In this document: positions 1-14,983 of the stretch, piece after piece
Layout of the letters: every line of letters starts with the position of its first letter
How positions within the stretch are numbered: the first letter of the stretch is position 1
NCBI GenBank assembly: GCA_030705745.1
Contig: JAUZPT010000011.1
Location: 1 to 19,939, forward strand
Origin: Bacillota bacterium
Lineage (GTDB): Bacteria; Bacillota; Bacilli; Bacillales; Cytobacillaceae
Reading direction: 5' to 3'
Length of the DNA: 19,939 nucleotides
Notes under the pieces: generated by a model
Seen by the model: the letters and a program-made list of their open reading frames with translations, nothing else
Databases searched by the model: none
What the model was told of the DNA's origin: nothing
Translations under genes and position numbers: made by a program

Positions 1-1173
1 ATTTTTCATCTCGTTTTGATTACTAGCCCGAAAATGACGAAGTGGAACAATTCCTATTTTATTTTATACGTATTGTCTCGAATACTTGAGGCACTGAAGT
101 TCAACTTCGCTTTTGCAGGGCATGGAGGACGATATGTTAAAAAAGGCCTGGATCCTGATAAATATTTAATCTGGAAAAAAGTCCTTCTTGGAGTTGTAAT
201 CTCCATTCCGGTTTTGTTTATTGTCTTGCAATTACTTATGGCTGCGGATAGCCAATTCGAACGAATCATCGGCGGGTTTCCACAATGGCTGGAGGTAATA
301 AACGCAGAAAGCTTTTTCCGAATACTCGTTGTACTGATTTATACATGTGGGTTTTTTGGCTTATTGCAGGTTTTATTCAAAAAGCAAATACAAGTGATGA
401 GGCAAGAGAATGAAAAGAAGTCTTTCGCCTTGGATGGAGTCATCGCAGTGACGGTGCTCGTTTTATTCAATGCGGTTTATGTTCTTTTCGTTATTGTCCA
501 ATTTAAATACTTTTTCAGTGGTACGCTTCAGGGAGATTATACATTTGCACAATATGCTCGCCGCGGATTTTTTGAACTTTTGTTTGTCACAATGATTAAT
601 TTGTCGATCACAGTGGCAGTCATCGCATTAGTCTCCCCATCGGGAAAGGGAGCGAAAAAATTCATCCAATCGATGCTCACGGTACTTGTTTTAACGAGCG
701 GCGTTATCTTAAGTTCAGCTTTTTTGCGCCTGCTCATGTACGAAGATGCGTATGGATTTACTTTTACAAGAGTGCTTGTGCACTCATTTATGATATTTCT
801 CATGCTCATTCTATCGTTTACTGCCGTAAAAATTTGGCTTGAAAAAGTCTCTCTGTTTCACTTTTATTTCATTACATCGCTCATTTACTATACAGCCATC
901 AATATTGTGAATATCGACCAAATTGTCGTCAAACAAAATATGGACCGCTATGAATCGACCGGGAAAATTGACGTCCAATACTTAAGCCATTTTTCTAGCA
1001 CGGGTGTATTAGGGTTGATCGATCTTTATAAAAAAAAGCCCAATATCCCGGAATTAAGGAATGAATTAACTCATCAAAAAAATTGGGTGAGAAATGGTGA
1101 AAGCCATTGGCAATCCTATAATCTTATTCGTTCACGTGCTGCCGAACAATTAAAAAATTTATCGATTAAATAG
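1..1173 (+). CDS. DUF4173-type multi-pass membrane protein, 5' end outside window
   Basis: The frame is open from the left edge of the window, so the true start lies upstream and this is a C-terminal part of about 390 residues. About seven hydrophobic segments of membrane-spanning length are visible, for example near residues 55-75, 100-122, 138-165, 183-207, 217-240, 252-275 and 280-300 of the visible part. They are followed by a soluble, charged tail of about 80 residues. The pattern and the conserved 'RxLMYEDAYGFTxxR' stretch fit the DUF4173 family of Firmicute membrane proteins. Function is not known for the family and nothing here adds to it. The gene ends just before a clear intrinsic terminator. 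Family assignment is from memory of the motif and could be wrong at the exact DUF number; a membrane protein is certain. Confidence 0.7.
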   Translation: MFHLVLITSPKMTKWNNSYFILYVLSRILEALKFNFAFAGHGGRYVKKGLDPDKYLIWKKVLLGVVISIPVLFIVLQLLMAADSQFERIIGGFPQWLEVINAESFFRILVVLIYTCGFFGLLQVLFKKQIQVMRQENEKKSFALDGVIAVTVLVLFNAVYVLFVIVQFKYFFSGTLQGDYTFAQYARRGFFELLFVTMINLSITVAVIALVSPSGKGAKKFIQSMLTVLVLTSGVILSSAFLRLLMYEDAYGFTFTRVLVHSFMIFLMLILSFTAVKIWLEKVSLFHFYFITSLIYYTAINIVNIDQIVVKQNMDRYESTGKIDVQYLSHFSSTGVLGLIDLYKKKPNIPELRNELTHQKNWVRNGESHWQSYNLIRSRAAEQLKNLSIK

Positions 1174-1178
1174 AATGA

Positions 1179-1212
1179 AACCACTCCTGTACTGATTGCA
1201 GGAGTGGTTTTT
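1179..1212 (+). terminator. Rho-independent terminator after the membrane protein gene
   Basis: An 11-bp perfect stem (AACCACTCCTG at 1179-1189 with its complement at 1199-1209) closes a 9-base loop and runs into a T-rich tail at 1207-1212. It lies 5 bases after the stop codon. Confidence 0.88.
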
Positions 1213-1263
1213 AAAAAATTGCATTTAGTTTTTGTGGTGAAATGCCACTGCAATCCTTTATCA

Positions 1264-1272
1264 TGGTAAAAT
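1264..1272 (+). promoter_or_regulatory. Possible extended -10 promoter of the HAD gene
   Basis: TGGTAAAAT (1264-1272) matches an extended -10 (TGn plus TAAAAT). It sits 36 bases before the chosen start at 1308 and just after the upstream terminator. No convincing -35 hexamer is visible at 16-18 bases upstream, so this is only a candidate. Confidence 0.35.
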
Positions 1273-1307
1273 GGAGTATAAATGTTTTCTGGAATGAGGT
1301 TGGTTTG

Positions 1308-2447
1308 ATGATTAAAACGATGTTGTTTGATGTGGATGGAGTATTGTTGAGTGAGGAGCATTATTTCGACGCCTCCGCATTGACAGTTTGGGAGCTTTTA
1401 TACAGCAATAACTATCTTGGTCTGCAGCCGCAAAAATTTTCAACGGAATATACATCTTCTGAAATAACAGCGATAAGAGAACAAGTTTTTCAGGAAGATG
1501 CGGTTTTGAAATTTTTAAAATCCCGTGGACTTAATGCGAATTGGGATATGATTTATTTAACGTTTAGCTATCAGCTCATCCATCTTTTATCCCAAATTAA
1601 AGAGGTGGAGTCAGAGCATATTAAAAAATGGCTTGGAATCCAAATCACAAGGGAAACGTTGCTCGAAATCGGAAATACACTTAAAAAACACAAAGTTACA
1701 GTCGAATTTCATTTATTTTTGGAAGACTTCCATCAATCTGTTGGGATGAAACAGTCACTATTTGATTATTTGGACACACTTGCAAAAGAAAAATTAGGTA
1801 TTGAAACAACTGTATTCCGCCAAAAGGGAACTCTTTGGTCCGTTTGTGAACATATTTCTCAGGAATGGTACGTAGGGGATGAAAATGTTTTCGCATCGAC
1901 AGGCAGGCCTTCGGTTCAGTTGGGCAAGAAAGGGTTTTTGGCGAATGAGGAAACGCTGCGGTCAAAGTCAGAAATAAGCGAGCTTTTCGAGTTTTTATTG
2001 AATGCTGGAATTTCGATCGGAATTGGAACGGGCCGGCCGGCTTTGGAAACGATTGAACCGTTCAAGCATTTAAACTGGCTGCGTTATTTTGAGGAAAACC
2101 ATATCGTAACTGCCGATGAAGTTTTAAAGGCTCAAAATGAATACACGAGCAAAAAATCGTTATCTAAACCACATCCATATACGTATATCCAGGCGCTGTA
2201 TGGCAAGGATTATCCGATTCAGGATTGCCTGCAAAAACACTTGCCGATTGAAAGCGCAAAGGAAGTATTGATTGTTGGAGATTCTCTTGCTGATTTATTG
2301 GCAGCACGCGAAATGGGTGCGACATTTGCAGCCGTTTTAACAGGGCTTTCCGGCCAAAATGCGAGAAGCGAATTCGAAAAATATCAAGCTGATTATATCC
2401 TCGATTCCGTTTTGGATGTTAAAAATTTAGTAGAGAGCATATATTGA
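1308..2447 (+). CDS. HAD-superfamily hydrolase with large cap insertion
   Basis: Likely a phosphatase or phosphotransferase of the haloacid dehalogenase superfamily; the substrate is unknown. Of 379 residues, motif I is DVDGV at residues 8-12 (Asp8 nucleophile, Asp10 acid/base), motif II is the Thr in GTGRP near residue 240, motif III is the Lys in LSKPHPY near 286, and motif IV is GDSLAD near 324-329. All four are present and ordered, so the enzyme looks active. About 225 residues separate motifs I and II, which is much longer than a usual C1 cap. The start at 1308 is chosen because GAGGT (1296-1300) sits 7 bases upstream and the DxDxG motif is then at the usual N-terminal position. An in-frame ATG at 1242 would add 22 residues without a ribosome site. 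The gene is convergent with serA, with a terminator between them; I see no direct link to serine synthesis. Confidence 0.85.
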   Translation: MIKTMLFDVDGVLLSEEHYFDASALTVWELLYSNNYLGLQPQKFSTEYTSSEITAIREQVFQEDAVLKFLKSRGLNANWDMIYLTFSYQLIHLLSQIKEVESEHIKKWLGIQITRETLLEIGNTLKKHKVTVEFHLFLEDFHQSVGMKQSLFDYLDTLAKEKLGIETTVFRQKGTLWSVCEHISQEWYVGDENVFASTGRPSVQLGKKGFLANEETLRSKSEISELFEFLLNAGISIGIGTGRPALETIEPFKHLNWLRYFEENHIVTADEVLKAQNEYTSKKSLSKPHPYTYIQALYGKDYPIQDCLQKHLPIESAKEVLIVGDSLADLLAAREMGATFAAVLTGLSGQNARSEFEKYQADYILDSVLDVKNLVESIY

Positions 2448-2469
2448 CTTTTATTCAGTCGGAATACAG

Positions 2470-2499
2470 AAAGAGGGGGAACCGTACCCCTCTTTTTGT
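2470..2499. terminator. Bidirectional terminator between HAD gene and serA
   Basis: A 9-bp stem (AAAGAGGGG at 2470-2478 with its complement at 2487-2495) is followed by a T run on the plus strand. The mirrored A/T flanks give a weaker T run on the minus strand. It sits between two convergent stops (2447 and 2514), so it can serve both genes. Confidence 0.82.
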
Positions 2500-2513
2500 T
2501 ATTAGATTTGTTA

Positions 2514-4130
2514 TTAAAAAATGGACTGGTTGGCGGATGGTGCGGGCAACTCCAAATTTTCAATTTCCTTTAAACCTTTAATTAATCCAAGCTGTTTAAT
2601 CACACCAATATCAGCTTTTTTATCAAGCGTGAGTACCATAATTGCATCACCACCGACAGCTGTTCTGCCTACTTGCATCGTTCCGATATTTATCTCGTAA
2701 TCTCCTAAAATGGAACCTACTTTTCCAATCATTCCAGGGACGTCCTGATGACAAATATAAAGCAAGTAGCGTTCCGGCTTGACATCGACGCGGTAAGTAT
2801 TCATTTTAACTATTCGTGCGCCATATCCATTTAACACCGTGGCTCCGATGCTTGCAGTCTTGTTTTCGCGCGAAATCACGAGCTCCATATAATTGGCGAA
2901 TCCTTTGTTCGCCGCATTTTTTTGGACGGTGTACGGAACTCCTTTTTCTTTTAAAAGGTGAAACGCATTGATTGCATTAACAGAATCCTTAAAATGATAG
3001 GAAAGAATACCCTTTATCATCATTCTTGTTAATAAATCAGTATCCTCGTCAATCAAATCCCCGTAAAAATTTATTTCAATTTTATCTGGTGCCTGCTTTA
3101 ATAATTGAACGGACAGTTGACCGAGCTGTTCCCCAAGAATGAGGAAGGGCTGGAGTTTATGTTGAGCTCCACCCGTTATTTGCGGCATATTTACCGCATT
3201 GTGGATCGAGTTTGTTTCAAAAATTTCTATGATTTCTGCGCTCACCTCCTCAGCCACCTTTTCCTGAGCTTCAACCGTTGAAGCTGCAAGGTGGGGAGTA
3301 ACAATAATATTCGGATGTTCAAGCAGTTCTTTTTTAATTACAGGTTCATTTTCAAATACATCAAGAGCGGCCCCAGCCACATGACCGGACTGAAGTGCCC
3401 GAATGAGGGCATTTTCATCAAGTATTCCGCCACGTGCACAATTTATTATCCGCACACCACTCTTTGTTTTGCTCAAATAGTCATCATCGATAAGCGATCT
3501 TGTTTCGTTGGTAAGGGGAGTATGGAGAGTGATGATATCAGATTCCCTCGCAATTTGTTCAAGGCTTGCGTTTGTTACACCAATTTTTTTAGCACGTTCC
3601 TCTGTTAAATAAGGATCATAGCCTAAGATTGTCATGCCAAAGCTCTTGGCGCGTTTGGCAACCTCTGTACCTATTTTTCCCATTCCGATGATTCCGAGCG
3701 TTTTTTTGTATAATTCGATTCCCTTAAAAGCACTGCGGTTCCAAATTCCTTCAGACGTAATTCTATGGGCCTGCGGAATATGTTTTACTAAAGAGAGCAT
3801 CATCGCCAACGTATGCTCAGTAGCCGCAATCGTATTCGCACCAGGCGCATTGATCACGATAATTCCTTTTCTGGTTGCAGCATTCACATCGATGTTGTCA
3901 ATACCAACCCCTGCACGGGCAATGACCTTTAATCGGTCGGCATTGTGCAACACTTCCTCGGTGACCTGTGTTTGGCTGCGGACAATCAATGCATCATAAT
4001 TTTTGATGATCTCCTTGATGTCTCTAGGAGGCAATCCGATTCGTTTATCCACTGAAAAATGAGGATGTTCCATCAAACTGCGAAGTCCATGGTCACTGAT
4101 TTCATCCGTAACAAGTACTTTATAATGCAT
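2514..4130 (-). CDS. serA: D-3-phosphoglycerate dehydrogenase
   Basis: Oxidises 3-phosphoglycerate to 3-phosphohydroxypyruvate with NAD+, the first committed step of serine synthesis in the cytoplasm. The 538 residues match the long Bacillus form: a substrate/nucleotide-binding dehydrogenase core (about 1-315), an intervening ASB-type domain (about 320-450) and a C-terminal ACT domain (about 458-530) that in this family usually senses serine. The Rossmann motif GMGKIG is at 149-154. The catalytic trio is Arg233 (in CARGG), Glu262 (in ENEP) and His280 (in TPHLAAST). The start is supported by AAGGAGG about 9 bases upstream. The first 11 bp overlap the end of the aminotransferase gene, so the two are co-transcribed and probably translationally coupled under the serine T-box leader. 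Confidence 0.97.
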   Translation of the reverse strand: MHYKVLVTDEISDHGLRSLMEHPHFSVDKRIGLPPRDIKEIIKNYDALIVRSQTQVTEEVLHNADRLKVIARAGVGIDNIDVNAATRKGIIVINAPGANTIAATEHTLAMMLSLVKHIPQAHRITSEGIWNRSAFKGIELYKKTLGIIGMGKIGTEVAKRAKSFGMTILGYDPYLTEERAKKIGVTNASLEQIARESDIITLHTPLTNETRSLIDDDYLSKTKSGVRIINCARGGILDENALIRALQSGHVAGAALDVFENEPVIKKELLEHPNIIVTPHLAASTVEAQEKVAEEVSAEIIEIFETNSIHNAVNMPQITGGAQHKLQPFLILGEQLGQLSVQLLKQAPDKIEINFYGDLIDEDTDLLTRMMIKGILSYHFKDSVNAINAFHLLKEKGVPYTVQKNAANKGFANYMELVISRENKTASIGATVLNGYGARIVKMNTYRVDVKPERYLLYICHQDVPGMIGKVGSILGDYEINIGTMQVGRTAVGGDAIMVLTLDKKADIGVIKQLGLIKGLKEIENLELPAPSANQSIF

Positions 4131-5306: not shown

Positions 5307-5352
5307 AAAAACGCCCCTCCCAACAGGCAGTATGATCCTGTTGGGAGGGGCG
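5307..5352 (-). terminator. Regulated terminator of the serine T-box leader
   Basis: A perfect 16-bp GC-rich stem (5312-5327 with 5337-5352) closes a 9-base loop. On the minus strand it is followed by a T run (5307-5311). Its 5' arm overlaps the bases that would pair with the T-box in the antiterminator, which is the classical switch. Confidence 0.93.
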
Positions 5353-5568
5353 TGGTATATACGCGGTGCCACCCTCATTTGTTACAATAAAAATAGTAAC
5401 CTCTAAACGATAACGGTGTTGGGCCGTCCCGGCCTAATTGATTTCAGCCGACAAGTTCAGAAGTGCTAGGTTTAATAAGAAAAGCATCGGTTCCCACCAG
5501 CCACCGACTCTCTGAGCCTTTTTCCCATCAACCTTCTTCATCATAACTACTATTATGAAAATCAATGT
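5307..5568 (-). ncRNA. T-box leader, serine-specific, upstream of aminotransferase-serA
   Basis: Read on the minus strand, this leader has the canonical T-box GAGGGTGGCACCGCG (5362-5376). Upstream is a Stem I region with the AGAGAG bulge and a TCGGT/ACCGA apical stem. The terminator that competes with the antiterminator lies downstream. The likely specifier is AGC (5465-5467), followed by A and held in a loop between GGTT/AACC and AGAA/TTCT pairings; AGC is a serine codon. The T-box bulge reads UGGC, which pairs with an acceptor end GCCA, as expected for a tRNA with discriminator G such as tRNA-Ser. Uncharged tRNA-Ser should therefore turn the operon on. The class is certain. The specifier was folded by eye, but two independent positions agree on serine. 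Confidence 0.93.
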
Positions 5569-6623: not shown

Positions 6624-7256
6624 TTGTTACATAAACAAATGGAACTATATGTTGCAGAACTTGTAAAGACAATAACTAAGGAACCGACAGAAAGTGGCAC
6701 AATTCTTGAAATGTTTAAGGAAGAAAAAGAATATGCAGAAACGCATAACTTATTGCCAAGCGAGTTCAAAAGCAAGTTGAGTGTAAAAGATTCCGGATCA
6801 AGATTTTTAGACGCATATATCGAAAGAGGCGACAAGGAAACAGAATCGTTCATTGGAAATGAAAGTCCAGATTTTTTGAACGAGCCGCTTGCCTATTTTA
6901 AACAGCACAAAAATGAGTTTCTTTATCTTGAATCGAAATGGTTTGAAGTCATTGGTGTGGATGCGATTTCTCTTGAAGCGGATGATGTATTCGGAACGTA
7001 TGACGTGATGCTTGGCTTGAAGCTCCAAAAAAAAGTTGATAAAGTCTTAAAAAATTGTCTGAATGCATTGGTTCAAGGAGATGGAGCTTCCTACGATGTA
7101 TTGTTTAATGGCGAGGATGGCTTATGGAATGTGAATTTTGCACTGAATAATGTTGACGGTTTTACTGAGGAAATGTCTATTCGGGATGCATATGAATTAA
7201 TATACAGCTTATTATTTACGCTTGTCGAAAAGGTGGAAGAAGAAATCAAGGGGTGA
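6624..7256 (+). CDS. Uncharacterised soluble protein, TTG start
   Basis: I do not recognise this 210-residue protein. It is acidic, has no membrane segments or signal peptide and no cysteine-rich or nucleotide-binding motif. It looks mainly helical at both ends, with a mixed middle part (about 95-170). It is probably real: a perfect TATAAT extended -10 precedes it, GGGAGG (6609-6614) sits 9 bases before the TTG at 6624, and codon use resembles neighbouring genes. The next in-frame ATG (6639) is too far from the ribosome site to be the start. It lies between an oxidoreductase gene and the eut operon in the same direction. The hairpin at 7357-7402 would stop its transcripts before eutS, so a shared role with ethanolamine use is not implied. 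Confidence 0.75.
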   Translation: MLHKQMELYVAELVKTITKEPTESGTILEMFKEEKEYAETHNLLPSEFKSKLSVKDSGSRFLDAYIERGDKETESFIGNESPDFLNEPLAYFKQHKNEFLYLESKWFEVIGVDAISLEADDVFGTYDVMLGLKLQKKVDKVLKNCLNALVQGDGASYDVLFNGEDGLWNVNFALNNVDGFTEEMSIRDAYELIYSLLFTLVEKVEEEIKG

Positions 7257-7305
7257 AATGAAAACGAATTGCCCTTCTTTTCTTTTCGATTATGAAGTTC
7301 TTAAA

Positions 7306-7334
7306 TTGACACGATCCAGCCGATTTAATAAAAT
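7306..7334 (+). promoter_or_regulatory. Strong sigma-A promoter upstream of the eut operon
   Basis: A perfect -35 TTGACA (7306-7311), a 17-base spacer and -10 TAAAAT (7329-7334, 5 of 6) are present. The predicted start is near 7341, about 127 bases before eutS. This is the best promoter match in the gap 7257-7467, and it lies upstream of, not downstream of, the hairpin terminator there. Confidence 0.75.
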
Positions 7335-7356
7335 TTTATATATATTCACACAACTG

Positions 7357-7402
7357 ATGCTTAATAGTTCTTACAACCGTAAGTGCCTATTAAGCATTTT
7401 TT
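7357..7402 (+). terminator. Intrinsic terminator in the eut leader
   Basis: An outer 11-bp stem (ATGCTTAATAG at 7357-7367 with its complement at 7387-7397) encloses an inner 5-bp stem (7370-7374 with 7379-7383) and an AACC loop. A run of six T follows at 7397-7402. It ends transcripts from the gene at 6624 but also lies about 16 bases after the predicted eut transcription start, so it may act as an attenuator. Confidence 0.82.
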
Positions 7403-7467
7403 CTTAAATCCAGTTTTATCCTAAAAAAATAAAGAGGCTTTGTCCAATAAAAAAGGGTGGATTAAAC

Positions 7468-7809
7468 ATGAGTGAGGAAAAAAAGAGGTTTATTCAGGAA
7501 TTCGTTCCGGGAAAGCAAGTAACATTAAGTCACATCATTGCCAATCCGGATGCGGATATGTTTGAAAAACTGGGCATACAGGAAGCAGGGGCATTGGGCA
7601 TTTTGACGTTGACACCAAGCGAGACGGTAATTATTGCTGGTGACTTGGCAACAAAGTCAGCCAATGTGAAAATAGGATTTCTTGACCGGTTTACAGGAAG
7701 TCTCGTAATTGTAGGAAGTGTTTCAGAAGTCGAAAGTGCCATGCAGGAAATCAATCGATTTCTTGAGAATATATTAAACTATACTACTGCTAAAATCACG
7801 AAGTCCTAA
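7468..7809 (+). CDS. eutS: Ethanolamine microcompartment shell protein EutS
   Basis: A circularly permuted BMC-domain protein of 113 residues that forms bent hexamers in ethanolamine microcompartment shells. The match to enterobacterial EutS (111 residues) is very close along its whole length: IQEFVPGKQVTL near the N-terminus, ITLTPxET and IAGDLATKSA in the middle, then IGFLDRFTGSLVI, and NYT...TKS at the C-terminus. The start is supported by AAGGGTGG about 8 bases upstream. It is the first gene of the eut operon, 27 bases ahead of eutP. No hexagonal EutM/EutK-type shell gene is found with it in this window, so how it is used in a shell is unclear. Confidence 0.96.
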   Translation: MSEEKKRFIQEFVPGKQVTLSHIIANPDADMFEKLGIQEAGALGILTLTPSETVIIAGDLATKSANVKIGFLDRFTGSLVIVGSVSEVESAMQEINRFLENILNYTTAKITKS

Positions 7810-7836
7810 TCTACTTCAAATGTGAGGGATCTATCC

Positions 7837-8337
7837 ATGACCAATAAAAATAGAGCAATGTTAATTGGCTCGATTGGTGCGGGCAAATCCACCCTCACCA
7901 ATGCATTGCTTGAAAAAGAAGTAAAAGTCGTCAAAACCCAGACGCTGATTTATTATGACTGGATTGTCGATACACCTGGTGAGTACACGGAAAATCCGCT
8001 GTTTTATAAAAATATTATGGCCACATCCCTGGAAGTTTCACATATTCTCTACTTGCAAGATGCCACAAAGAAAAACACAGTTTTTCCACACGGCTACAGT
8101 CTCGGACTCAACAAATTGCCAATCGGTATTGTCACAAAAAGCGATCATGAACGTGCGGATATTTTGGCAGCTGTTGCTCAATTAAGAAAAGTCATTCCAA
8201 AAGGTCCAATCGTAGTTGCCTCATCGGTCAAAAAAGAAGGTTTGGTAGAAATTCGCGAATTTGTTAAATGTAATTCGCTTGAGGAAATGAAACACTACTT
8301 TAATAACCATCCTTCTGAAAAAGTATTTTTTAAGTGA
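7837..8337 (+). CDS. eutP: EutP/PduV-family small GTPase
   Basis: A P-loop GTPase-like protein of 166 residues encoded with ethanolamine or propanediol microcompartments. Relatives bind or hydrolyse nucleotides, and an acetate kinase activity has been reported for some EutP proteins. Walker A is GSIGAGKST (11-19), the DxxG motif is DTPGEY (45-50), and the base-specificity motif is TKSD in place of NKxD, as in other EutP. The start at 7837 is chosen for GAGGGAT about 7 bases upstream and for the close N-terminal P-loop. A GTG at 7822 would add five residues and lies inside that ribosome site. It follows eutS by 27 bases. The product has no hydrophobic segment and should be cytoplasmic. Confidence 0.93.
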   Translation: MTNKNRAMLIGSIGAGKSTLTNALLEKEVKVVKTQTLIYYDWIVDTPGEYTENPLFYKNIMATSLEVSHILYLQDATKKNTVFPHGYSLGLNKLPIGIVTKSDHERADILAAVAQLRKVIPKGPIVVASSVKKEGLVEIREFVKCNSLEEMKHYFNNHPSEKVFFK

Positions 8338-8342
8338 AAATC

Positions 8343-8371
8343 TTTACATTTTTCAGATTATATTTTATATT
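8343..8371 (+). promoter_or_regulatory. Possible internal promoter ahead of eutA
   Basis: TTTACA (8343-8348), a 17-base spacer and TATATT (8366-8371) fit a sigma-A promoter at 5 of 6 bases each. The tract is very AT-rich, so a chance match is possible. It falls in the only sizeable gap (131 bases) within the eut operon. Confidence 0.5.
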
Positions 8372-8388
8372 TTGATTATACAAATCAA
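8372..8388. repeat. Inverted repeat overlapping the eutA internal promoter
   Basis: TTGATT (8372-8377) and AATCAA (8383-8388) form a perfect 6-bp inverted repeat around 5 bases. It lies directly after the -10 of the candidate promoter, where an operator would sit. It has no T tail and is not a terminator. Confidence 0.35.
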
Positions 8389-8468
8389 TTTACAGGCAAT
8401 GGGGCCGCATGCAAACTGTTAATTCAGACGGTTTATATGTGGCGTTTTTGTTTTTTGGGAGATGGGAA

Positions 8469-9917
8469 ATGAAACACTTAACTCCACAAAATGAAGAAAT
8501 CATTTCCGCTGGTATCGACATTGGAACAAGCACGACCAAGATCGTCATCAGTAAATTTACGCTTATGAATATGGCTGGCGGGGCGCATATGCCTCGAATT
8601 GAAATTATCAATAAAGACATCATCTACCGAAGCCCTATTTTTCCAACTCCGTTAGTAACTTCAACGATCGTTGATATCGAAGCAGTTGACGAACTAGTGA
8701 GATTGGAATATATAAAAGCCGGAATTCGACCTGAAGACATAAAGACAGGTGCCGTTATTATTACTGGGGAAACAGCAACAAAGAAAAATGCCGAAGAAAT
8801 GATACATCATCTATCCGATTATGCGGGTGAGTTTATTGTTGCAACTGCTGGGGCGGATCTAGAGGGGATTATTGCCGCCAAAGGCTCGGGGGCATATGAA
8901 TTTTCGAAAATCAGTAGAAGCCGTGTGATTGCCAATATTGATATCGGCGGGGGGACAGCCAATGTGGCAGTATACAAGGCTGGCAAGCTTTGCGGAACAT
9001 GTACTTTACATATAGGAGGAAGGTTGATCCGATTTTCCGATGATAAAATTGGAAAGATCTCGGAGCCTATTAAAAATTTATTACACGAGTGGAAGTCAGA
9101 CCTTAAAGAAGGACGGACTTTTTCGTTAACAGAAATTGAAAGTATTACAGATTATATGGCACAAGTCATTGGACGAATGCTAAAGCGAGAGCTGACAGCA
9201 ACGGATAAGAACCTTTTGCTTGGACATGAGCCCAACTGGAATGAATGCATCAATGCGATCATGTTTTCCGGAGGTATTGGTGAATGTATTTATCAATATG
9301 AAAAAAATTCATCTGATCCGCAAAGCTTCAATGATATAGGCATGATATTGGCAAAGTCGCTGACAACGGCTTCCTCTTTAAGTGATTGGGAATGGATAAG
9401 GCCACAAGAGACAGTTAGGGCAACCGTTCTTGGAGCCGGCGCACATACGACTGAAATTAGCGGAGCGACGATTGAAGTTGAAAAAGAGGACTTACCGATC
9501 AAGAATTTGCCTGTGTATGAGATTTGTTTTGAGAATGATTTCCTGAAAGGCATCAAGAAAATTCCCTTTGCTATTAAAGAAGCAATTGATATGTATGATT
9601 CCTATAATGAAGGACAGAATTTCTCGATTTATTTTTCGAAAATTCCTCATATTGGATTTAAGGAAGTTCATCAACTAGTCGATTGCCTTCTTAATTCAAT
9701 GAAACAAGTGAAACACTCGGATGTGCCTTTGGTGATTGTGTTGGAAAGTGATCTCGCCAAGGTGGTGGGCCAAACCATTAAAATGATACAACCGAAGCAA
9801 AAAATCATTTGCATTGATCAAATTCAAGTTGAACATGGTGATTATTTGGATATCGGACAAGTTTTGCAGACAAATGTTGTTCCGGTTGTGATTAAAACAC
9901 TAACTTTCCATCAGTAA
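8469..9917 (+). CDS. eutA: Ethanolamine ammonia-lyase reactivating factor EutA
   Basis: Reactivates EutBC by an ATP-dependent exchange of damaged cobalamin for fresh adenosylcobalamin. The 482 residues carry the ASKHA ATPase fold: phosphate-1 motif GIDIGTSTTK (15-24), phosphate-2 motif NIDIGGGTAN (156-165) and adenosine motif FSGGIGE (266-272). Length and order fit EutA (about 467 in enterobacteria). The start at 8469 is chosen because GGGAG (8457-8461) lies 7 bases upstream and the phosphate-1 motif is then at the usual position. An in-frame ATG at 8409 would add 20 residues that do not resemble EutA. Placed directly before eutB, with 16 bases between them. Confidence 0.96.
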   Translation: MKHLTPQNEEIISAGIDIGTSTTKIVISKFTLMNMAGGAHMPRIEIINKDIIYRSPIFPTPLVTSTIVDIEAVDELVRLEYIKAGIRPEDIKTGAVIITGETATKKNAEEMIHHLSDYAGEFIVATAGADLEGIIAAKGSGAYEFSKISRSRVIANIDIGGGTANVAVYKAGKLCGTCTLHIGGRLIRFSDDKIGKISEPIKNLLHEWKSDLKEGRTFSLTEIESITDYMAQVIGRMLKRELTATDKNLLLGHEPNWNECINAIMFSGGIGECIYQYEKNSSDPQSFNDIGMILAKSLTTASSLSDWEWIRPQETVRATVLGAGAHTTEISGATIEVEKEDLPIKNLPVYEICFENDFLKGIKKIPFAIKEAIDMYDSYNEGQNFSIYFSKIPHIGFKEVHQLVDCLLNSMKQVKHSDVPLVIVLESDLAKVVGQTIKMIQPKQKIICIDQIQVEHGDYLDIGQVLQTNVVPVVIKTLTFHQ

Positions 9918-9933
9918 GGAAGGAGGAAAAACG

Positions 9934-11298
9934 ATGAAATTAAGTACAAATTATATAGGAACCGTTTATCAGTTTTCTTCCCTGAAGGACTTATTTGCGA
10001 AAGCGAATGAAGAAAAGTCCGGTGACCGACTGGCTGGAATCGCAGCGGAAACCGTCCAGGAACGTATTGCCGCCAAAGAAGTTTTAAGTCATATCACAAT
10101 AGCAGAGATCAGGGAAAATCCAATGCTTTCGCCTGAAGAAGACGAAGTGTCACGAATTATCGAAAACCAAATCAATAGACCAGTCTATCAATCAATCAAG
10201 AATTGGTCGGTGGCAGAATTAAGGGAATACATTTTAAGCGATAAAACGACCGGTGAGGATTTAAAAAGGCTTGGCAAGGGATTAAACAGCGAAATGATTG
10301 CTGCCGTTGCAAAAATCATGTCCAATCTTGACCTCGTGCATGCTGCCAATAAATTGGAGGTCTTGTCGAAATGCAATATAACAATTGGGCAAAAAGGAGT
10401 ACTCGCATCGAGGCTGCAGCCCAATCATCCTACGGACAGTGTTGAAGGCATGCTTGCATCTCTGAAAGAAGGTCTGTCATACGGAATCGGTGACGCCGTA
10501 ATCGGCATCAATCCGGTTGATGATTCGGTAGAAAGCGTAAAACGTTTGCTTCATGCTACTCATGATTTCATTAAGCAATGGCAAGTTCCAACCCAAAATT
10601 GTGTACTGGCACATGTGACGGCGCAAATGAAAGCGATCCAACAAGGTGCACCTGCTGACATGATTTTCCAAAGTATTGCTGGAACGGAAGCAGCAAACCG
10701 TTCATTTGGTATAACCGCCTCATTATTGGAGGAAGCCAACGAAATGGCAAAGATCTACGGAACTGGCACTGGTCCGCAACGCCTTTATTTTGAGACTGGA
10801 CAAGGATCCGAACTATCGGCGGAAGCGCATTTTGGAATTGATCAAATGACACTCGAATCGCGCAATTACGGATTTGCACGCTATTATGATCCATTTATCG
10901 TCAATACGGTCGTCGGCTTCATTGGACCCGAATATTTGTATAACAACAAACAGGTTATTCGCGCAGGCCTTGAGGATCATTTTATGGGAAAACTGCACGG
11001 TATCCCAATGGGAGTCGACATTTGCTATACGAACCATATCAAAGCTGACCAAAATGATATCGAGGATTTAGCGGTCCTTTTGACTGCGGCAGGAGTGAAT
11101 TTTGTCATAGCTGCTCCAATGGGAGATGATTGCATGTTGAACTATCAATCTCTCAGCTACCACGATGTTGCTACCCTAAGACAGACGTTGAACAAACGCC
11201 CTGCTCCAATTTTTGAAGACTGGCTGGAGAAAATGGGAATCTACGAAAATGGAAAACTAAGTTCAATTGCAGGCGATCCGACAATTTTCACGCGATAG
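9934..11298 (+). CDS. eutB: Ethanolamine ammonia-lyase large subunit
   Basis: Catalytic TIM-barrel subunit of the adenosylcobalamin-dependent enzyme that splits ethanolamine into acetaldehyde and ammonia. At 454 residues it is almost the same length as the E. coli protein (453), and active-site residues fall at the same numbers: Arg160 and Gln162 (in SRLQPNHP), Asn193 (GIN), Glu287 (YFETGQGSE) and Asp362 (VDICYTNH). The enzyme should therefore be active if cobalamin is available. The ribosome site AAGGAGG is about 8 bases upstream. It is followed by eutC after 13 bases. No gene for acetaldehyde dehydrogenase or alcohol dehydrogenase follows, so the fate of acetaldehyde must be decided by genes elsewhere. 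Confidence 0.98.
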   Translation: MKLSTNYIGTVYQFSSLKDLFAKANEEKSGDRLAGIAAETVQERIAAKEVLSHITIAEIRENPMLSPEEDEVSRIIENQINRPVYQSIKNWSVAELREYILSDKTTGEDLKRLGKGLNSEMIAAVAKIMSNLDLVHAANKLEVLSKCNITIGQKGVLASRLQPNHPTDSVEGMLASLKEGLSYGIGDAVIGINPVDDSVESVKRLLHATHDFIKQWQVPTQNCVLAHVTAQMKAIQQGAPADMIFQSIAGTEAANRSFGITASLLEEANEMAKIYGTGTGPQRLYFETGQGSELSAEAHFGIDQMTLESRNYGFARYYDPFIVNTVVGFIGPEYLYNNKQVIRAGLEDHFMGKLHGIPMGVDICYTNHIKADQNDIEDLAVLLTAAGVNFVIAAPMGDDCMLNYQSLSYHDVATLRQTLNKRPAPIFEDWLEKMGIYENGKLSSIAGDPTIFTR

Positions 11299-11311
11299 GA
11301 GGTGGATCAGG

Positions 11312-12352
11312 ATGAATCCTGAACTTGTTGAAACCATTACAAAATTAATTGTTGAAAAATTACAAACCGTTTACCATTTGTCAGATGAAGCTGATGATAC
11401 CGCAAAACTGCTACCAGAATCGGTCAAGCTATGGAATACGAAGTCACACGATGAAAACGGTAAAAATCATGGCTTTACCTTTGAACACGCATCTGAAAGG
11501 AAAGAAGACTCCGATCAGCTTGTAAAATTCAGCGATTATACGTCTGCTCCGAATGTGACGGAACAAAAGGAGAAAGCAGAAAGCAAAAAATCACCGGTTC
11601 AATGCGAGGAACAAATGGTTCAGGACGGGATCGAACAGCCATTCAATCAAGAAGAACTAGAATCGCTGATCAGCAAAACGCCCGCTCGAATTGGAGTAGG
11701 CCGTGCTGGTTTGCGTCCAAAAACGAGCACTTGGCTTAAATTTCGTTATGATCATGCCGCAGCAGTCGATGCAGTTTATGGAAACGTCAATGAAGAGCTG
11801 CTAAAGAGCCTGGATCTTTTTAAGGTGAATACTCTGGTAACCGAAAAGGAAGTGTATATTCGCCGCCCGGATATGGGACGAAAGCTTTCAGACGAAGCAA
11901 AAAATATGATTTCATCGAAATGTGTAAAGTCTCCTACCGTTCAAATTGTCGTTTCCGACGGTTTAAGCTCAAAAGCGATTGACGCAAATTTGGAGGACGT
12001 CTTTTTATCGCTTCAGCAGTCGCTGAAAAGTATTGGACTCGATGTTGGAACTCCTTTCTTTATCGAAAAAGGCAGGGTTGCTGTCATGGATGATATTGGC
12101 GAACTTCTCCGGCCGAAGATTGTCGTTTTATTGATTGGTGAGCGGCCAGGCTTGGTAAGCGCAGAGTCTTTAAGCGCTTATTTATGCTACGAACCGCGCA
12201 TCGGAACAATCGAAGCGGACCGAATGGTGATCTCGAATATTCATAAAGGGGGAATTCCTCCGGTTGAAGCAGGTGCCTACCTCGGTACCATCATTCAAAA
12301 AGTATTGAAGTATGAAGCCAGTGGTGTATCACTCGTTCAAAAAGAAGGGTAG
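11312..12352 (+). CDS. eutC: Ethanolamine ammonia-lyase small subunit
   Basis: Partner of EutB; it helps form the cobalamin-binding site at the subunit interface. Of 346 residues, the conserved core begins near 110 and shows GRAGLRPKT (130-138), RRPDMGR, VVSDGLSSKAI, LIGERPGL and SNIHKGGIPPVEA, all typical of EutC. Residues 2-20 form a predicted amphipathic helix like the N-terminal targeting peptide of enterobacterial EutC. Between it and the core lies about 90 residues of charged, low-complexity linker (Lys, Glu, Asp, Ser, Gln), making the protein about 50 residues longer than the E. coli one (295). The start has GGAGGTG 7-8 bases upstream and lies in the same frame as a longer open frame that begins inside eutB. 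Confidence 0.96.
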   Translation: MNPELVETITKLIVEKLQTVYHLSDEADDTAKLLPESVKLWNTKSHDENGKNHGFTFEHASERKEDSDQLVKFSDYTSAPNVTEQKEKAESKKSPVQCEEQMVQDGIEQPFNQEELESLISKTPARIGVGRAGLRPKTSTWLKFRYDHAAAVDAVYGNVNEELLKSLDLFKVNTLVTEKEVYIRRPDMGRKLSDEAKNMISSKCVKSPTVQIVVSDGLSSKAIDANLEDVFLSLQQSLKSIGLDVGTPFFIEKGRVAVMDDIGELLRPKIVVLLIGERPGLVSAESLSAYLCYEPRIGTIEADRMVISNIHKGGIPPVEAGAYLGTIIQKVLKYEASGVSLVQKEG

Positions 12353-12364
12353 GAGGCGATAAAA

Positions 12365-13018
12365 GTGAGCTTAGAGCGCATATATGCCGAAGTGCTGGCC
12401 GTTCGCATCATTGCAAATGTGGATGTAGCATTAGCAGAGCAATTTAAGTTAAGGCCTGATCAAAGAAGTTTGGCTATTTTCACTTCCACCATTGATGATG
12501 TAGGTTACACAGCTTTGGATGAAGCGACAAAAAGAGCCGATGTTGAAGTAGTGTATGCACGCTCCTTCTATGCAGGAGCGGCTCATTCGTCCGGTCCGTT
12601 ATCCGGTGAAATGATCGGAGTAATAGCCGGCCCCTCACCGGATGAAGTGAAAAGCGGTATGGATGCAGTAAGGCAAACGATTGAATCTGATGCTTATTTC
12701 GAGGCTATTAGCGAGGACAAAAGCCATGCACTGTATGCACATGTTGTTGCAAGAACAGGTGCATATCTCGCGAATGAAGCTGGTGTAAAACAAGGTGAAC
12801 CATTAGCCTATTTAATTGCACCTCCGTTGGAAGCAGTCTATGGCCTTGATGCTGCTTTAAAGGCAGCCGATGTGAAACTGATGAAATTTTTCGGTCCTCC
12901 CTCGGAAACAAATTTTGGTGGAGCCTTGTTGACGGGCTCTCAATCAGCCTGCCAGGCAGCAGTGGATGCATTTAAGGAAGCGATTTTGACGATTGCCAAA
13001 AATCCAACACAGTATTAA
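12365..13018 (+). CDS. eutL: Ethanolamine microcompartment shell protein EutL
   Basis: A tandem-BMC (trimeric) shell protein of 217 residues, believed in the family to gate a central pore for substrate or cofactor passage. Family features are the N-terminal stretch ending in ALAEQFKL, the SFYAGAAHSSGPLSGE loop, AGPSPDEV, and in the second half HVVARTGAYLA, EPLAYLIAPPLEA and FFGPPSETNFGGALLTGS. The GTG start has AGGAGGCG about 7 bases upstream. It lies 12 bases after eutC and is the last gene before a strong terminator, so it closes the operon. EutK, which follows eutL in enterobacteria, is absent. Confidence 0.96.
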   Translation: MSLERIYAEVLAVRIIANVDVALAEQFKLRPDQRSLAIFTSTIDDVGYTALDEATKRADVEVVYARSFYAGAAHSSGPLSGEMIGVIAGPSPDEVKSGMDAVRQTIESDAYFEAISEDKSHALYAHVVARTGAYLANEAGVKQGEPLAYLIAPPLEAVYGLDAALKAADVKLMKFFGPPSETNFGGALLTGSQSACQAAVDAFKEAILTIAKNPTQY

Positions 13019-13062
13019 GCTCCTTATCGTTTAAACCAACCAATGAATAAACTTAATTAAAT

Positions 13063-13112
13063 AAGCAAAAAACGATGTCTCCTTTAATAGAGACATCGTT
13101 TTTTGCTTTTTA
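13063..13112 (+). terminator. Strong terminator ending the eut operon
   Basis: A perfect 19-bp stem (13063-13081 with 13090-13108) closes an 8-base loop and is followed by a T tract. The A-rich 5' arm would also give a T-rich end on the minus strand. Confidence 0.95.
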
Positions 13113-13124
13113 CAAGCGTTAATA
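13110..13124 (+). promoter_or_regulatory. Weak cre-like site before the permease promoter
   Basis: TTACAAGCGTTAATA matches 13 of 15 positions of the Bacillus CcpA consensus WTGNAANCGNWNNCW, with mismatches at the conserved G and at the last C. It touches the -35 of the next promoter. Suggestive only. Confidence 0.3.
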
Positions 13125-13153
13125 TTGTTAGAATATTTGGAATATATTACAAT
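13125..13153 (+). promoter_or_regulatory. Promoter of the small protein-permease unit
   Basis: -35 TTGTTA (13125-13130), a 17-base spacer and -10 TACAAT (13148-13153). It is the best match between the eut terminator and the 47-residue gene and would give a leader of about 95 bases. Confidence 0.65.
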
Positions 13154-13256
13154 ATACTTGTCTGTAAAAGTTTATAACCTACCTGATTCCTTAACGTCTT
13201 GTGATTCAGACAATTTTGATACTTTTCACCAAGCAGTTAGGAAGGAGGTATACATG

Positions 13257-13397
13257 ATGGAAGTATTCGTTGGTATAGCACTTATTATTCTTACTATTCT
13301 GGTAGGAACAGCAATTGGCTTAAAGGCAAACAAAAATGTCCGTTCATTTAAAGAAGCAGAACACGAAATTTATGTTGGCCAGAAAATGAAAAAATAA
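13257..13397 (+). CDS. Small single-pass membrane protein, 46-47 residues
   Basis: A short protein with one hydrophobic helix (about residues 3-22: valine, isoleucine and leucine rich with glycines) followed by a basic, charged tail ending in KMKK. By the positive-inside rule the tail should face the cytoplasm. It is very likely a real gene: AAGGAGG ends 8 bases before the ATG at 13257 (an ATG at 13254 is also possible), and a promoter lies upstream. Its stop is 20 bases before the preferred permease start and overlaps by one base an ATG of the longer permease frame, so translation is probably coupled. I do not recognise the family. A small accessory subunit of the permease is the simplest idea (inference). 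Confidence 0.75.
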   Translation: MEVFVGIALIILTILVGTAIGLKANKNVRSFKEAEHEIYVGQKMKK

Positions 13398-13417
13398 TGG
13401 AAATTGGGGTGGATATA

Positions 13418-14983
13418 TTGAAGTCAAAGGAACAACAAATGCTCGAGGATAAAAAGCAGCTTAACCATTATGGTTATGCGCAGGAATTATTGCGTGACAT
13501 GGGTGGATTTTCAAATTTCGCCATTTCGTTTTCCATTATTTCGATCCTGACTGGAGCTGTTTCCTTATATGGCTACGGCCTAATGTATGGTGGTCCTGGC
13601 ATGATGGGATACGGATGGACAATCGTCGCTTTCTTTGTTCTCTTGGTGTCGGCTTCTCTCGCTGAACTTGCCTCAGCCATTCCTACTGCAGGGGCATTAT
13701 ACCATTGGTCTGCTGCGTTGATGGGGACAAGAATTGGCTGGTATACTGCCTGGATTAATTTAATTGGCCAAATTGGCATCGTCGCTGGAATTGATTACTC
13801 GGTGGCGCTGTTCGCAGATCCTCTCCTTGGTGGAATTTTCAATTATAGCTCCACAGATACAACTATTTTGATCGTATTTGGTGTTGTTTTGCTTTTACAC
13901 GGCATTCTAAATCATGTTGGCATTAAAATCGTCGCCAAGTTAAATGATTTCTCGGCGTGGTATCATATGGCAGTTGTCGCGATTTTAGTAGTCAGCCTGG
14001 CATTTTTTACGAAACATGGCCTACAGCCGATTGATTATTTATTTCACATTGGAAAAACATTTACAGATAAGCCGTATGCACTGGCCTTTTTAATTGGATT
14101 ATTACAGGCGCAATGGACGTTTACGGGATTCGATGCTTCCGCTCATACAATTGAAGAAACCGTGCACCCGAGGGTAAGAGCTCCTTGGGGAATCTTTAAT
14201 TCCGTCGCTTTTTCATTTGTGTTCGGATTCATCATGCTTGCTTTTGTCACCCTATCGATTCATAATGCAAATGGAGCTGTGCATTCTGACAATGCATTTA
14301 TTTATGTCATCAGCCAGGCATTAGGCGGTACGTTTGGAAACATCGTCCTGTGGCTCGTTACATTTGCCATGTTCTTTTGTGGGCTTTCTTCCATTACATC
14401 GTTTTCACGTATGATGTATGCGTTTTCGAGGGATAACGGTATGCCTTTTAGCAAGCAATGGGCCGAGATCAGCCGCAAGTATCGTACCCCTGCAAAAGCC
14501 ATTTGGCTCTCCGTCATTCTGTCATTTGTACTCGCATTTATTGACTATGTGGCAAAAAAAATAAATCCGAATTTCAGTTATTCTACAATCGCGTTTTTAA
14601 CAGCAGTAAGCGTGGTTGGTTTATACGTAGCATACGGCATTCCGATTTTCTTAAAGTTGCGAGCTGAATCGAAAGGGTATTTCAAACCAAAGCATTATGG
14701 ACCTTGGAGCCTCGGAAAATGGAGCCGTCCGATCAATGTTCTGAGCTTATTGTGGATTGTTTTCATATGTGTTGTAATGGTCATTCCTCCGAATCAAATG
14801 GCAGGGTATGCGATTGTTGGAATGTTCATTCTTCTTTTCATCATGGACGTCGCACACTATAAGTACCATTTTAAAGGCCCGCAAGCAGCACTTGAAAAAT
14901 CGGTTGAAGAGATCAAGCGTTTAGAGGGAGAATTTGAACACATTATACACGGCAATGATTCTGACCAGAATTTCTCCCAATAG
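13418..14983 (+). CDS. APC-superfamily amino acid/amine permease
   Basis: A secondary transporter of about 521 residues with some twelve hydrophobic segments and a charged cytoplasmic C-terminal tail of about 50 residues. The N-terminal signature MGGFSNFAISFSIISILTG and SLAELASAIPTAGALYHWSA are typical of the amino acid/choline transporter branch of the APC superfamily, whose members carry GABA, choline or related compounds. Following the eut operon, it may import ethanolamine (inference), since EutH, the usual eut transporter, is not in the window. The start is uncertain. TTG at 13418 has GGGGTGG 5 bases upstream, and ATG at 13439 has AAAGGA 8 bases upstream. The ATG at 13397 has no ribosome site. 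Confidence 0.88.
   Translation: MKSKEQQMLEDKKQLNHYGYAQELLRDMGGFSNFAISFSIISILTGAVSLYGYGLMYGGPGMMGYGWTIVAFFVLLVSASLAELASAIPTAGALYHWSAALMGTRIGWYTAWINLIGQIGIVAGIDYSVALFADPLLGGIFNYSSTDTTILIVFGVVLLLHGILNHVGIKIVAKLNDFSAWYHMAVVAILVVSLAFFTKHGLQPIDYLFHIGKTFTDKPYALAFLIGLLQAQWTFTGFDASAHTIEETVHPRVRAPWGIFNSVAFSFVFGFIMLAFVTLSIHNANGAVHSDNAFIYVISQALGGTFGNIVLWLVTFAMFFCGLSSITSFSRMMYAFSRDNGMPFSKQWAEISRKYRTPAKAIWLSVILSFVLAFIDYVAKKINPNFSYSTIAFLTAVSVVGLYVAYGIPIFLKLRAESKGYFKPKHYGPWSLGKWSRPINVLSLLWIVFICVVMVIPPNQMAGYAIVGMFILLFIMDVAHYKYHFKGPQAALEKSVEEIKRLEGEFEHIIHGNDSDQNFSQ

What the first reader, a model, noticed from the sequence alone, without database searches (positions are those of the whole stretch)
7468..13018. 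Reduced ethanolamine locus: lyase plus two shell proteins, no aldehyde-processing genes
The order eutS-eutP-eutA-eutB-eutC-eutL follows the enterobacterial operon but skips the whole block between eutP and eutA (eutQ, T, D, M, N, E, J, G, H) and ends without eutK or a regulator. EutS and EutL alone should not close a shell, since the main hexagonal tile (EutM) and the pentamer vertex (EutN) are missing. Either the other parts are encoded elsewhere, or this is a different use of EutS and EutL, for example an open scaffold around EutBC for nitrogen scavenging. A strong terminator directly after eutL shows the operon is complete as built, not cut by the window edge on that side.
Basis: partly seen in the sequence, partly recalled or inferred. 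Interest (0 to 1): 0.7.

Follow-up and report, generated by a model that had tools for sequence, protein, structure and literature searches.

The report
Ethanolamine genes borrowing another organelle's shell
This gene cluster is an ethanolamine-degradation operon that has lost its own shell and aldehyde genes, most likely because a second protein organelle encoded in the same genome can supply them; gene clusters of this kind have been described before.

Summary
In detail: eutS-P-A-B-C-L (7468-13018) is intact, is followed by a strong terminator, and has no eutM, eutN, eutE, phosphotransacylase or regulator beside it. It is not a free-standing reduced design. Its closest relatives carry eutE, hexamer, pentamer and second hexamer genes directly after eutL, so this copy has lost a block of about 6 kb and its eutVW-like regulator. 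The same genome holds a second microcompartment locus, of the sugar-phosphate (SPU) type (contig C57), with two hexamers, three pentamers, PduL, aldehyde dehydrogenase and DeoC; synteny in a relative places C57 next to this contig. In the family, 6 of 53 EutL loci lack a pentamer gene (5 also lack a hexamer); all 6 lie in SPU-bearing genomes, against 11 of the other 47 (Fisher p = 0.0005, not corrected for phylogeny). Such losses happened at least three times. In a reduced sister pair eutL and eutS remain under purifying selection. Best reading: an 'EUT module' feeding the SPU organelle, as Sutter et al. (2021) proposed for such satellite loci. Against: the SPU aldehyde dehydrogenase carries an in-frame stop in this assembly, the assembly is about 86% complete, no shared operator was found, and co-assembly is untested.

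The parts
7306..7334 (+). promoter-like site before eutS (11 of 12 consensus bases)
   Evidence: weak: 20 promoter-like sites found in 7000-13500 against 15.6 expected by shuffling
7356..7400 (+). leader hairpin with T-run before eutS; its outer stem (TGCTTAATAG/CTATTAAGCA) is also seen before eutS in complete relatives
   Evidence: fold z -7.1; comparison by eye
7468..7809 (+). eutS (permuted hexameric shell protein)
   Evidence: NCBIfam NF012012 139.7 bits, cut-off 123
7837..8337 (+). eutP (EutP/PduV GTPase family)
   Evidence: PF10662 108.5 bits, cut-off 21
8466..9917 (+). eutA (lyase reactivase)
   Evidence: NF007992 E 2.3e-141, below the equivalog cut-off
9934..11298 (+). eutB (ethanolamine ammonia-lyase, large subunit)
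   Evidence: NF011649 669 bits, cut-off 554
11309..12352 (+). eutC (small subunit) with an N-terminal extension of about 100 residues that starts with a peptide resembling an encapsulation peptide
   Evidence: the peptide is judged by eye
12365..13018 (+). eutL (trimeric shell protein)
   Evidence: TIGR04502 360 bits, cut-off 300
13019..13253 (+). place of the lost block (eutE, hexamer, pduL, pentamer, hexamer, mdh, ethanolamine permease in L010)
   Evidence: comparison with L010 and other complete loci
13066..13105 (.). terminator hairpin after eutL (T-run on both sides)
   Evidence: fold z -9.0
13254..13397 (+). 47-residue protein that precedes the permease in relatives too
   Evidence: no Pfam match
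13397..14983 (+). amino-acid/amine permease (TIGR00907-like), candidate ethanolamine importer
   Evidence: 83-89% identical copies beside 12 other EUT loci of the family

Best explanation
The locus is a satellite 'EUT module' made by deletion. A complete Bacillaceae ethanolamine operon (eutVW-S-P-A-B-C-L-E-M-pduL-N-K-mdh-permease) lost its regulator and everything after eutL in a genome that also carries an SPU-type microcompartment. EutBC, carried by the N-terminal peptide of EutC and kept active by EutA, would be taken into the SPU organelle. The SPU hexamers and pentamers form the shell, EutL and EutS tile into it as ethanolamine-specific pores, and the acetaldehyde made by EutBC is passed to the SPU aldehyde dehydrogenase and PduL, which already serve the acetaldehyde released by DeoC. 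Shown: gene content, the missing block relative to relatives, the SPU locus, its linkage by synteny, the association of the loss with SPU, selection on eutL/eutS in a reduced sister pair. Inferred: co-assembly, shared catalysis, the pore role.
For: Complete operons in relatives (30 of 30 closest loci) and in the window's sister clade (bootstrap 95). SPU locus on C57, neighbour of this contig by synteny with G162. 6 of 6 EutL loci without a pentamer gene lie in SPU genomes, against 11 of 47 others. At least three separate losses. dN/dS of eutL 0.073 and eutS 0.014 in the reduced pair G123-G161. SPU hexamer 2 is 75-82% identical to the best hexamer of the 48 EUT loci that have one. A cobalamin adenosyltransferase-family gene is present on C109.
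Against: The SPU aldehyde dehydrogenase of this assembly has one in-frame stop, while nine other SPU loci have none, and no TIGR02518 enzyme at E <= 1e-100 was found in this genome. No shared operator; no EutV orthologue in the assembled genome although the leader hairpin remains. 11 SPU genomes keep a complete EUT locus, so SPU permits but does not force the loss. In the window lineage EutS and EutA are among the longer branches (ranks 2 and 1 of 26). The EutC peptide does not discriminate: paralogues of EutC have a similar start. Assembly 85.68% complete.
Confidence: 0.68

Rival explanations
1. The operon is decaying: shell and aldehyde genes are gone, EutBC works free in the cytosol for nitrogen, and EutS and EutL are leftovers.
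For: The SPU aldehyde dehydrogenase is interrupted in this assembly; the regulator pair is gone; EutS and EutA of the window are on the long side.
Against: All six genes are intact; EutL of the window is not accelerated (rank 20 of 26); in the reduced pair G123-G161 eutL and eutS are under purifying selection; five loci keep exactly eutS, P, A, B, C, L and a permease after separate losses.
Confidence: 0.14
2. The missing block exists in the part of the genome that was not assembled, or the junction after eutL is an assembly error; the system is then an ordinary split or complete EUT locus.
For: 85.68% complete, 566 contigs. I found no second genome with the same junction to confirm it.
Against: eutL is followed by its own terminator and by the small protein and permease that also end the operon in the sister clade; four other loci from other genomes, 99-100% complete, show an equivalent loss.
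Confidence: 0.1
3. EutS and EutL form an open scaffold or sheet around EutBC without any closed shell.
For: They are the only shell proteins in the locus.
Against: Each EutL genome of the family also has a pentamer gene, and hexamers close to EutM are encoded in the same genome.
Confidence: 0.05

Closest known systems
'EUT module' satellite loci of HO, SPU3 and SPU6 microcompartments (Sutter et al. 2021, PMC8217296; passages read)
   Same: EutA/B/C with a EutL-type shell protein, apart from a main locus of another type in the same genome; the authors propose that the main organelle is extended to ethanolamine with EutL as entry pore
   Different: here EutS and EutP are kept too; the host locus is SPU-type but its subtype was not assigned; the module can be traced to deletion from complete operons
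Complete EUT operons of Bacillaceae and relatives (for example L010, L089)
   Same: same genes and order from eutS to eutL; same downstream small protein and permease in the sister clade
   Different: they have eutE, hexamers, pentamer, usually pduL, and a kinase/regulator pair
Enterobacterial eut operon (E. coli K-12)
   Same: homologous eutS, eutP, eutA, eutB, eutC, eutL
   Different: other core enzymes and order; it is not the template for the missing block here

Membership tests
EUT-module satellite locus (Sutter et al. 2021) | EutA/B/C together with a EutL-type shell protein | tested here: met
   (EutA by a hit below the equivalog cut-off)
EUT-module satellite locus (Sutter et al. 2021) | locus lacks the hexamer-plus-pentamer set of a main locus, and a main locus lies elsewhere in the genome | tested here: met
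   no BMC-P in the window; hexamers and pentamers on C57
EUT-module satellite locus (Sutter et al. 2021) | main locus of HO, SPU3 or SPU6 type | tested here: inconclusive
   SPU type met by PF01791 and PF02502; subtype not assigned
EUT-module satellite locus (Sutter et al. 2021) | EutBC, EutL and EutS physically in the main organelle | not testable with these tools
   needs purification and microscopy
SPU microcompartment locus (C57) | PF01791 aldolase and PF02502 isomerase with hexamer, pentamer and aldehyde dehydrogenase genes | tested here: met
   the aldehyde dehydrogenase has one in-frame stop
Complete EUT main locus | at least one hexamer and one pentamer gene in the locus | tested here: not met
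   no BMC-P and no EutM-type hexamer in the window

The most novel reading that the evidence does not exclude
One bacterial organelle repeatedly absorbs the pathway of another: once an SPU shell is present, EUT operons can shed their own hexamers, pentamer and aldehyde enzymes but keep the pore proteins EutL and EutS, giving a hybrid organelle for ethanolamine and deoxyribose phosphate with one shell and one acetaldehyde branch.
Probability: 0.5. Interest if true: 0.72.

Novelty: new member of a known kind. Interest (0 to 1): 0.5.

Why it matters
It gives the proposed role of satellite EUT loci a testable case in Bacillaceae, with a clear ancestral state and repeated losses. If true, shell tiles of different organelles mix in nature under selection, and EutL and EutS are the parts that make a shell fit for ethanolamine, separate from the bulk shell.

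Tried and rejected
Shared control by the SPU regulator: the element conserved before SPU operons was turned into a score from 8 loci. SPU promoters score 34-43 (L113, not used in building it, 34.4). The best window score is 14.8, equal to the maximum of one shuffle; L103 13.5 and L105 12.5 exceed their shuffle, L102 11.3 does not, L107 has 18.1 far from eutL. No site comes near a true one. Rejected.

Encapsulation peptide as proof: EutC paralogues beside complete loci have a similar short start, so it was dropped as a discriminator.

C57 as contamination: its helicase is closest to genus g19 (80%), then same-genus G162 (74%, partial), G163 and G164 (68%). The window's SerA shows a like pattern (G162 76%, g19 74-76%, G164 70%, G163 69%), while its GlgC-like protein is closest to G162 and G164 (71%, 66%). 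Synteny in G162 joins both contigs. Contamination is judged unlikely.

RNA families: one T-box in the window; nothing at gathering score in the eutS leader (two weak hits at E 0.35 and 0.87).

Literature searches: 'EutL, EutS, Bacillaceae, microcompartment' no paper; 'EUT module' two papers, Sutter 2021 and a Listeria paper seen in the listing only; 'sugar phosphate utilization' with ethanolamine three papers; 'Neobacillus' with ethanolamine and microcompartment none. Supplementary files of Sutter 2021 could not be read, so its own table may already hold some of these genomes.

Full report
What is there. The window is the whole contig C13 of a draft genome (566 contigs, 85.68% complete, 4.9% contamination). 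eutS-eutP-eutA-eutB-eutC-eutL are uninterrupted ORFs from 7468 to 13018, recognised by NCBIfam or Pfam. A hairpin with a 16-bp stem and T-run follows eutL (z -9.0), another with a T-run precedes eutS (z -7.1), downstream of a promoter-like site (where promoter- and terminator-like counts are near the shuffled ones).

What is missing, and relative to what. 70 loci around eutL relatives were fetched from named genomes and annotated by tblastn. In the 30 closest (L007-L036), 30 of 30 have an EutE-like gene, a hexamer, a pentamer and a second hexamer directly after eutL; a PduL match was seen in 26 of 30 (none in L012, L015, L020, L026). L010 gives a full order: histidine kinase, response regulator, eutS-P-A-B-C-L, acetaldehyde dehydrogenase, EutM-like, PduL, pentamer, second hexamer, malate dehydrogenase, ethanolamine permease (TIGR00908), a small protein, and a permease 87% identical to the window's. 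I call the first two eutW and eutV from their place; their family hits are generic. In the window eutL is followed, after 235 bp, by the same small protein and permease. The simplest reading is a net loss of about 6 kb and seven genes after eutL, plus loss of the regulator pair.

The second locus. PF00936 has five matches in this genome: one in EutS and two in EutL on C13, two on C57. PF03319 has three, which by ORF list and Pfam are the three on C57. C57 encodes a SorC-type regulator, PduL, a 244-residue protein without Pfam match, three BMC-P, an aldehyde dehydrogenase, two BMC-H, triosephosphate isomerase, RpiB and DeoC. This fits the SPU type as described by Sutter et al. 2021 (PMC8217296, passages read) and Axen et al. 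2014 (PMC4207490, passages read). The aldehyde dehydrogenase has one in-frame stop in this assembly; nine other SPU loci examined have none. G000 has no TIGR02518 match at E <= 1e-100.

Same genome. In the single-contig chromosome of same-genus G162, a helicase and three further genes of C57 and five genes of C13 (methyltransferase, GlgC-like, transaminase, SerA, HAD hydrolase) lie within about 26 kb in consistent orientation. If that order holds here, the SPU locus lies on the side of C57 that faces the eut module, at least 11 kb from eutL. This is an inference from synteny.

Family survey. Of 193 family genomes, 94 have a BMC-domain match and the same 94 have a BMC-P match (lists compared by eye). 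52 genomes hold 53 EutL loci over the TIGR04502 cut-off. All 53 were read from DNA (window and fetches; annotated). Five have no hexamer match (window, G113, G123, G161 and the second copy in G151), and the tables show no pentamer, EutE or PduL beside them. G129 has E, hexamers and pduL but no pentamer there; its three pentamers are those of its SPU locus. Three more loci (G102, G127, G131) lack eutE, the first two also pduL, but keep hexamer and pentamer; these genomes are SPU-negative by the marker. The marker, the 244-residue protein of C57, is strong (E < 1e-30) in 24 of 193 genomes. G132 has an SPU locus without it and was added by inspection (L154), so the marker can miss SPU loci. Loci without a pentamer: 6 of 6 in SPU genomes; with one: 11 of 47; one-sided Fisher p = 0.00054; after dropping 17 close relatives by hand, 5 of 5 against 8 of 31, p = 0.0034. 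Neither test models phylogeny.

Origins. In the concatenated tree (51 loci, G121 and G125 left out) the window is sister to six complete loci, all in SPU genomes (bootstrap 95). G129 lies elsewhere in that half. The four other reduced loci fall in a distant clade (bootstrap 100) with another gene order, eutL first. So at least three separate losses; inside the distant clade support is weak (53-68), so it may hold one to three.

Are EutL and EutS still used? For the reduced pair G123-G161 dN/dS is 0.073 (eutL) and 0.014 (eutS), within the range of the seven other pairs (eutL 0.030-0.211, eutS 0.009-0.137). On the window's branch EutL is not accelerated (rank 20 of 26), while EutS and EutA are long (ranks 2 and 1). 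SPU hexamer 2 of this genome is 75-82% identical to the best hexamer of the 48 EUT loci that have one, hexamer 1 60-82%. That these tiles pack with EutL and EutS as EutM does is inferred from identity.

Regulation. The outer stem of the leader hairpin resembles that of complete relatives (by eye), yet the best EutV-like hits in G000, G123 and G161 are generic regulators at 28-35% identity, while G113 keeps a 48% match beside its module. The SPU promoter element is not at the module. How the two loci would be expressed together is open. That EutVW act by antitermination is recalled, not tested.

Interpretation. The proposal of Sutter et al., an SPU or HO organelle extended to ethanolamine with EutL as pore, explains content, loss pattern and selection better than decay, incompleteness or an open scaffold. 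The step from gene pattern to hybrid organelle is inference. The interrupted SPU aldehyde dehydrogenase and the draft state of this genome are the main points against.

Names. Equal contig lengths suggest that G130 is the genome of L010, G151 of L007, G148 of L016 and G164 of L014 (Neobacillus terrae); nothing else supports these identities.

Noticed in passing
window 13254-14983: A 47-residue protein directly precedes the TIGR00907-like permease; the pair is found together beside 13 of 53 EUT loci (window included), which suggests a two-part importer.
   Followed up: partly
window 5343-5553, minus strand: T-box leader (RF00230, 102.7 bits) upstream of an aminotransferase and SerA on the minus strand, probably a serine-responsive switch.
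   Followed up: no
L139 (G129) 12304-13201: Otherwise complete EUT operon that lacks only the pentamer gene, in an SPU genome: a possible early step of the same process.
   Followed up: partly
L169 (G101) 192-3441: A SorC-type regulator like that of the SPU locus stands directly before the helicase with no SPU genes between: looks like loss of an SPU locus; G101 is not among the genomes with BMC matches.
   Followed up: no
G151 (L102, L132, L155, L161, L162): One genome with a complete EUT operon, a reduced EUT module, an SPU locus and two further loci with hexamer, EutE-like, PduL and pentamer matches.
   Followed up: no
L010 12662-13519: PduL carries a C-terminal part with weak PduM similarity (residues 238-277, below cut-off).
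   Followed up: no
L118-L128, L133, L136, L146, L147, L151: Many complete EUT loci have a second, diverged eutB/eutC pair close by (about 55-62% identity in EutB) whose role is unclear.
   Followed up: no
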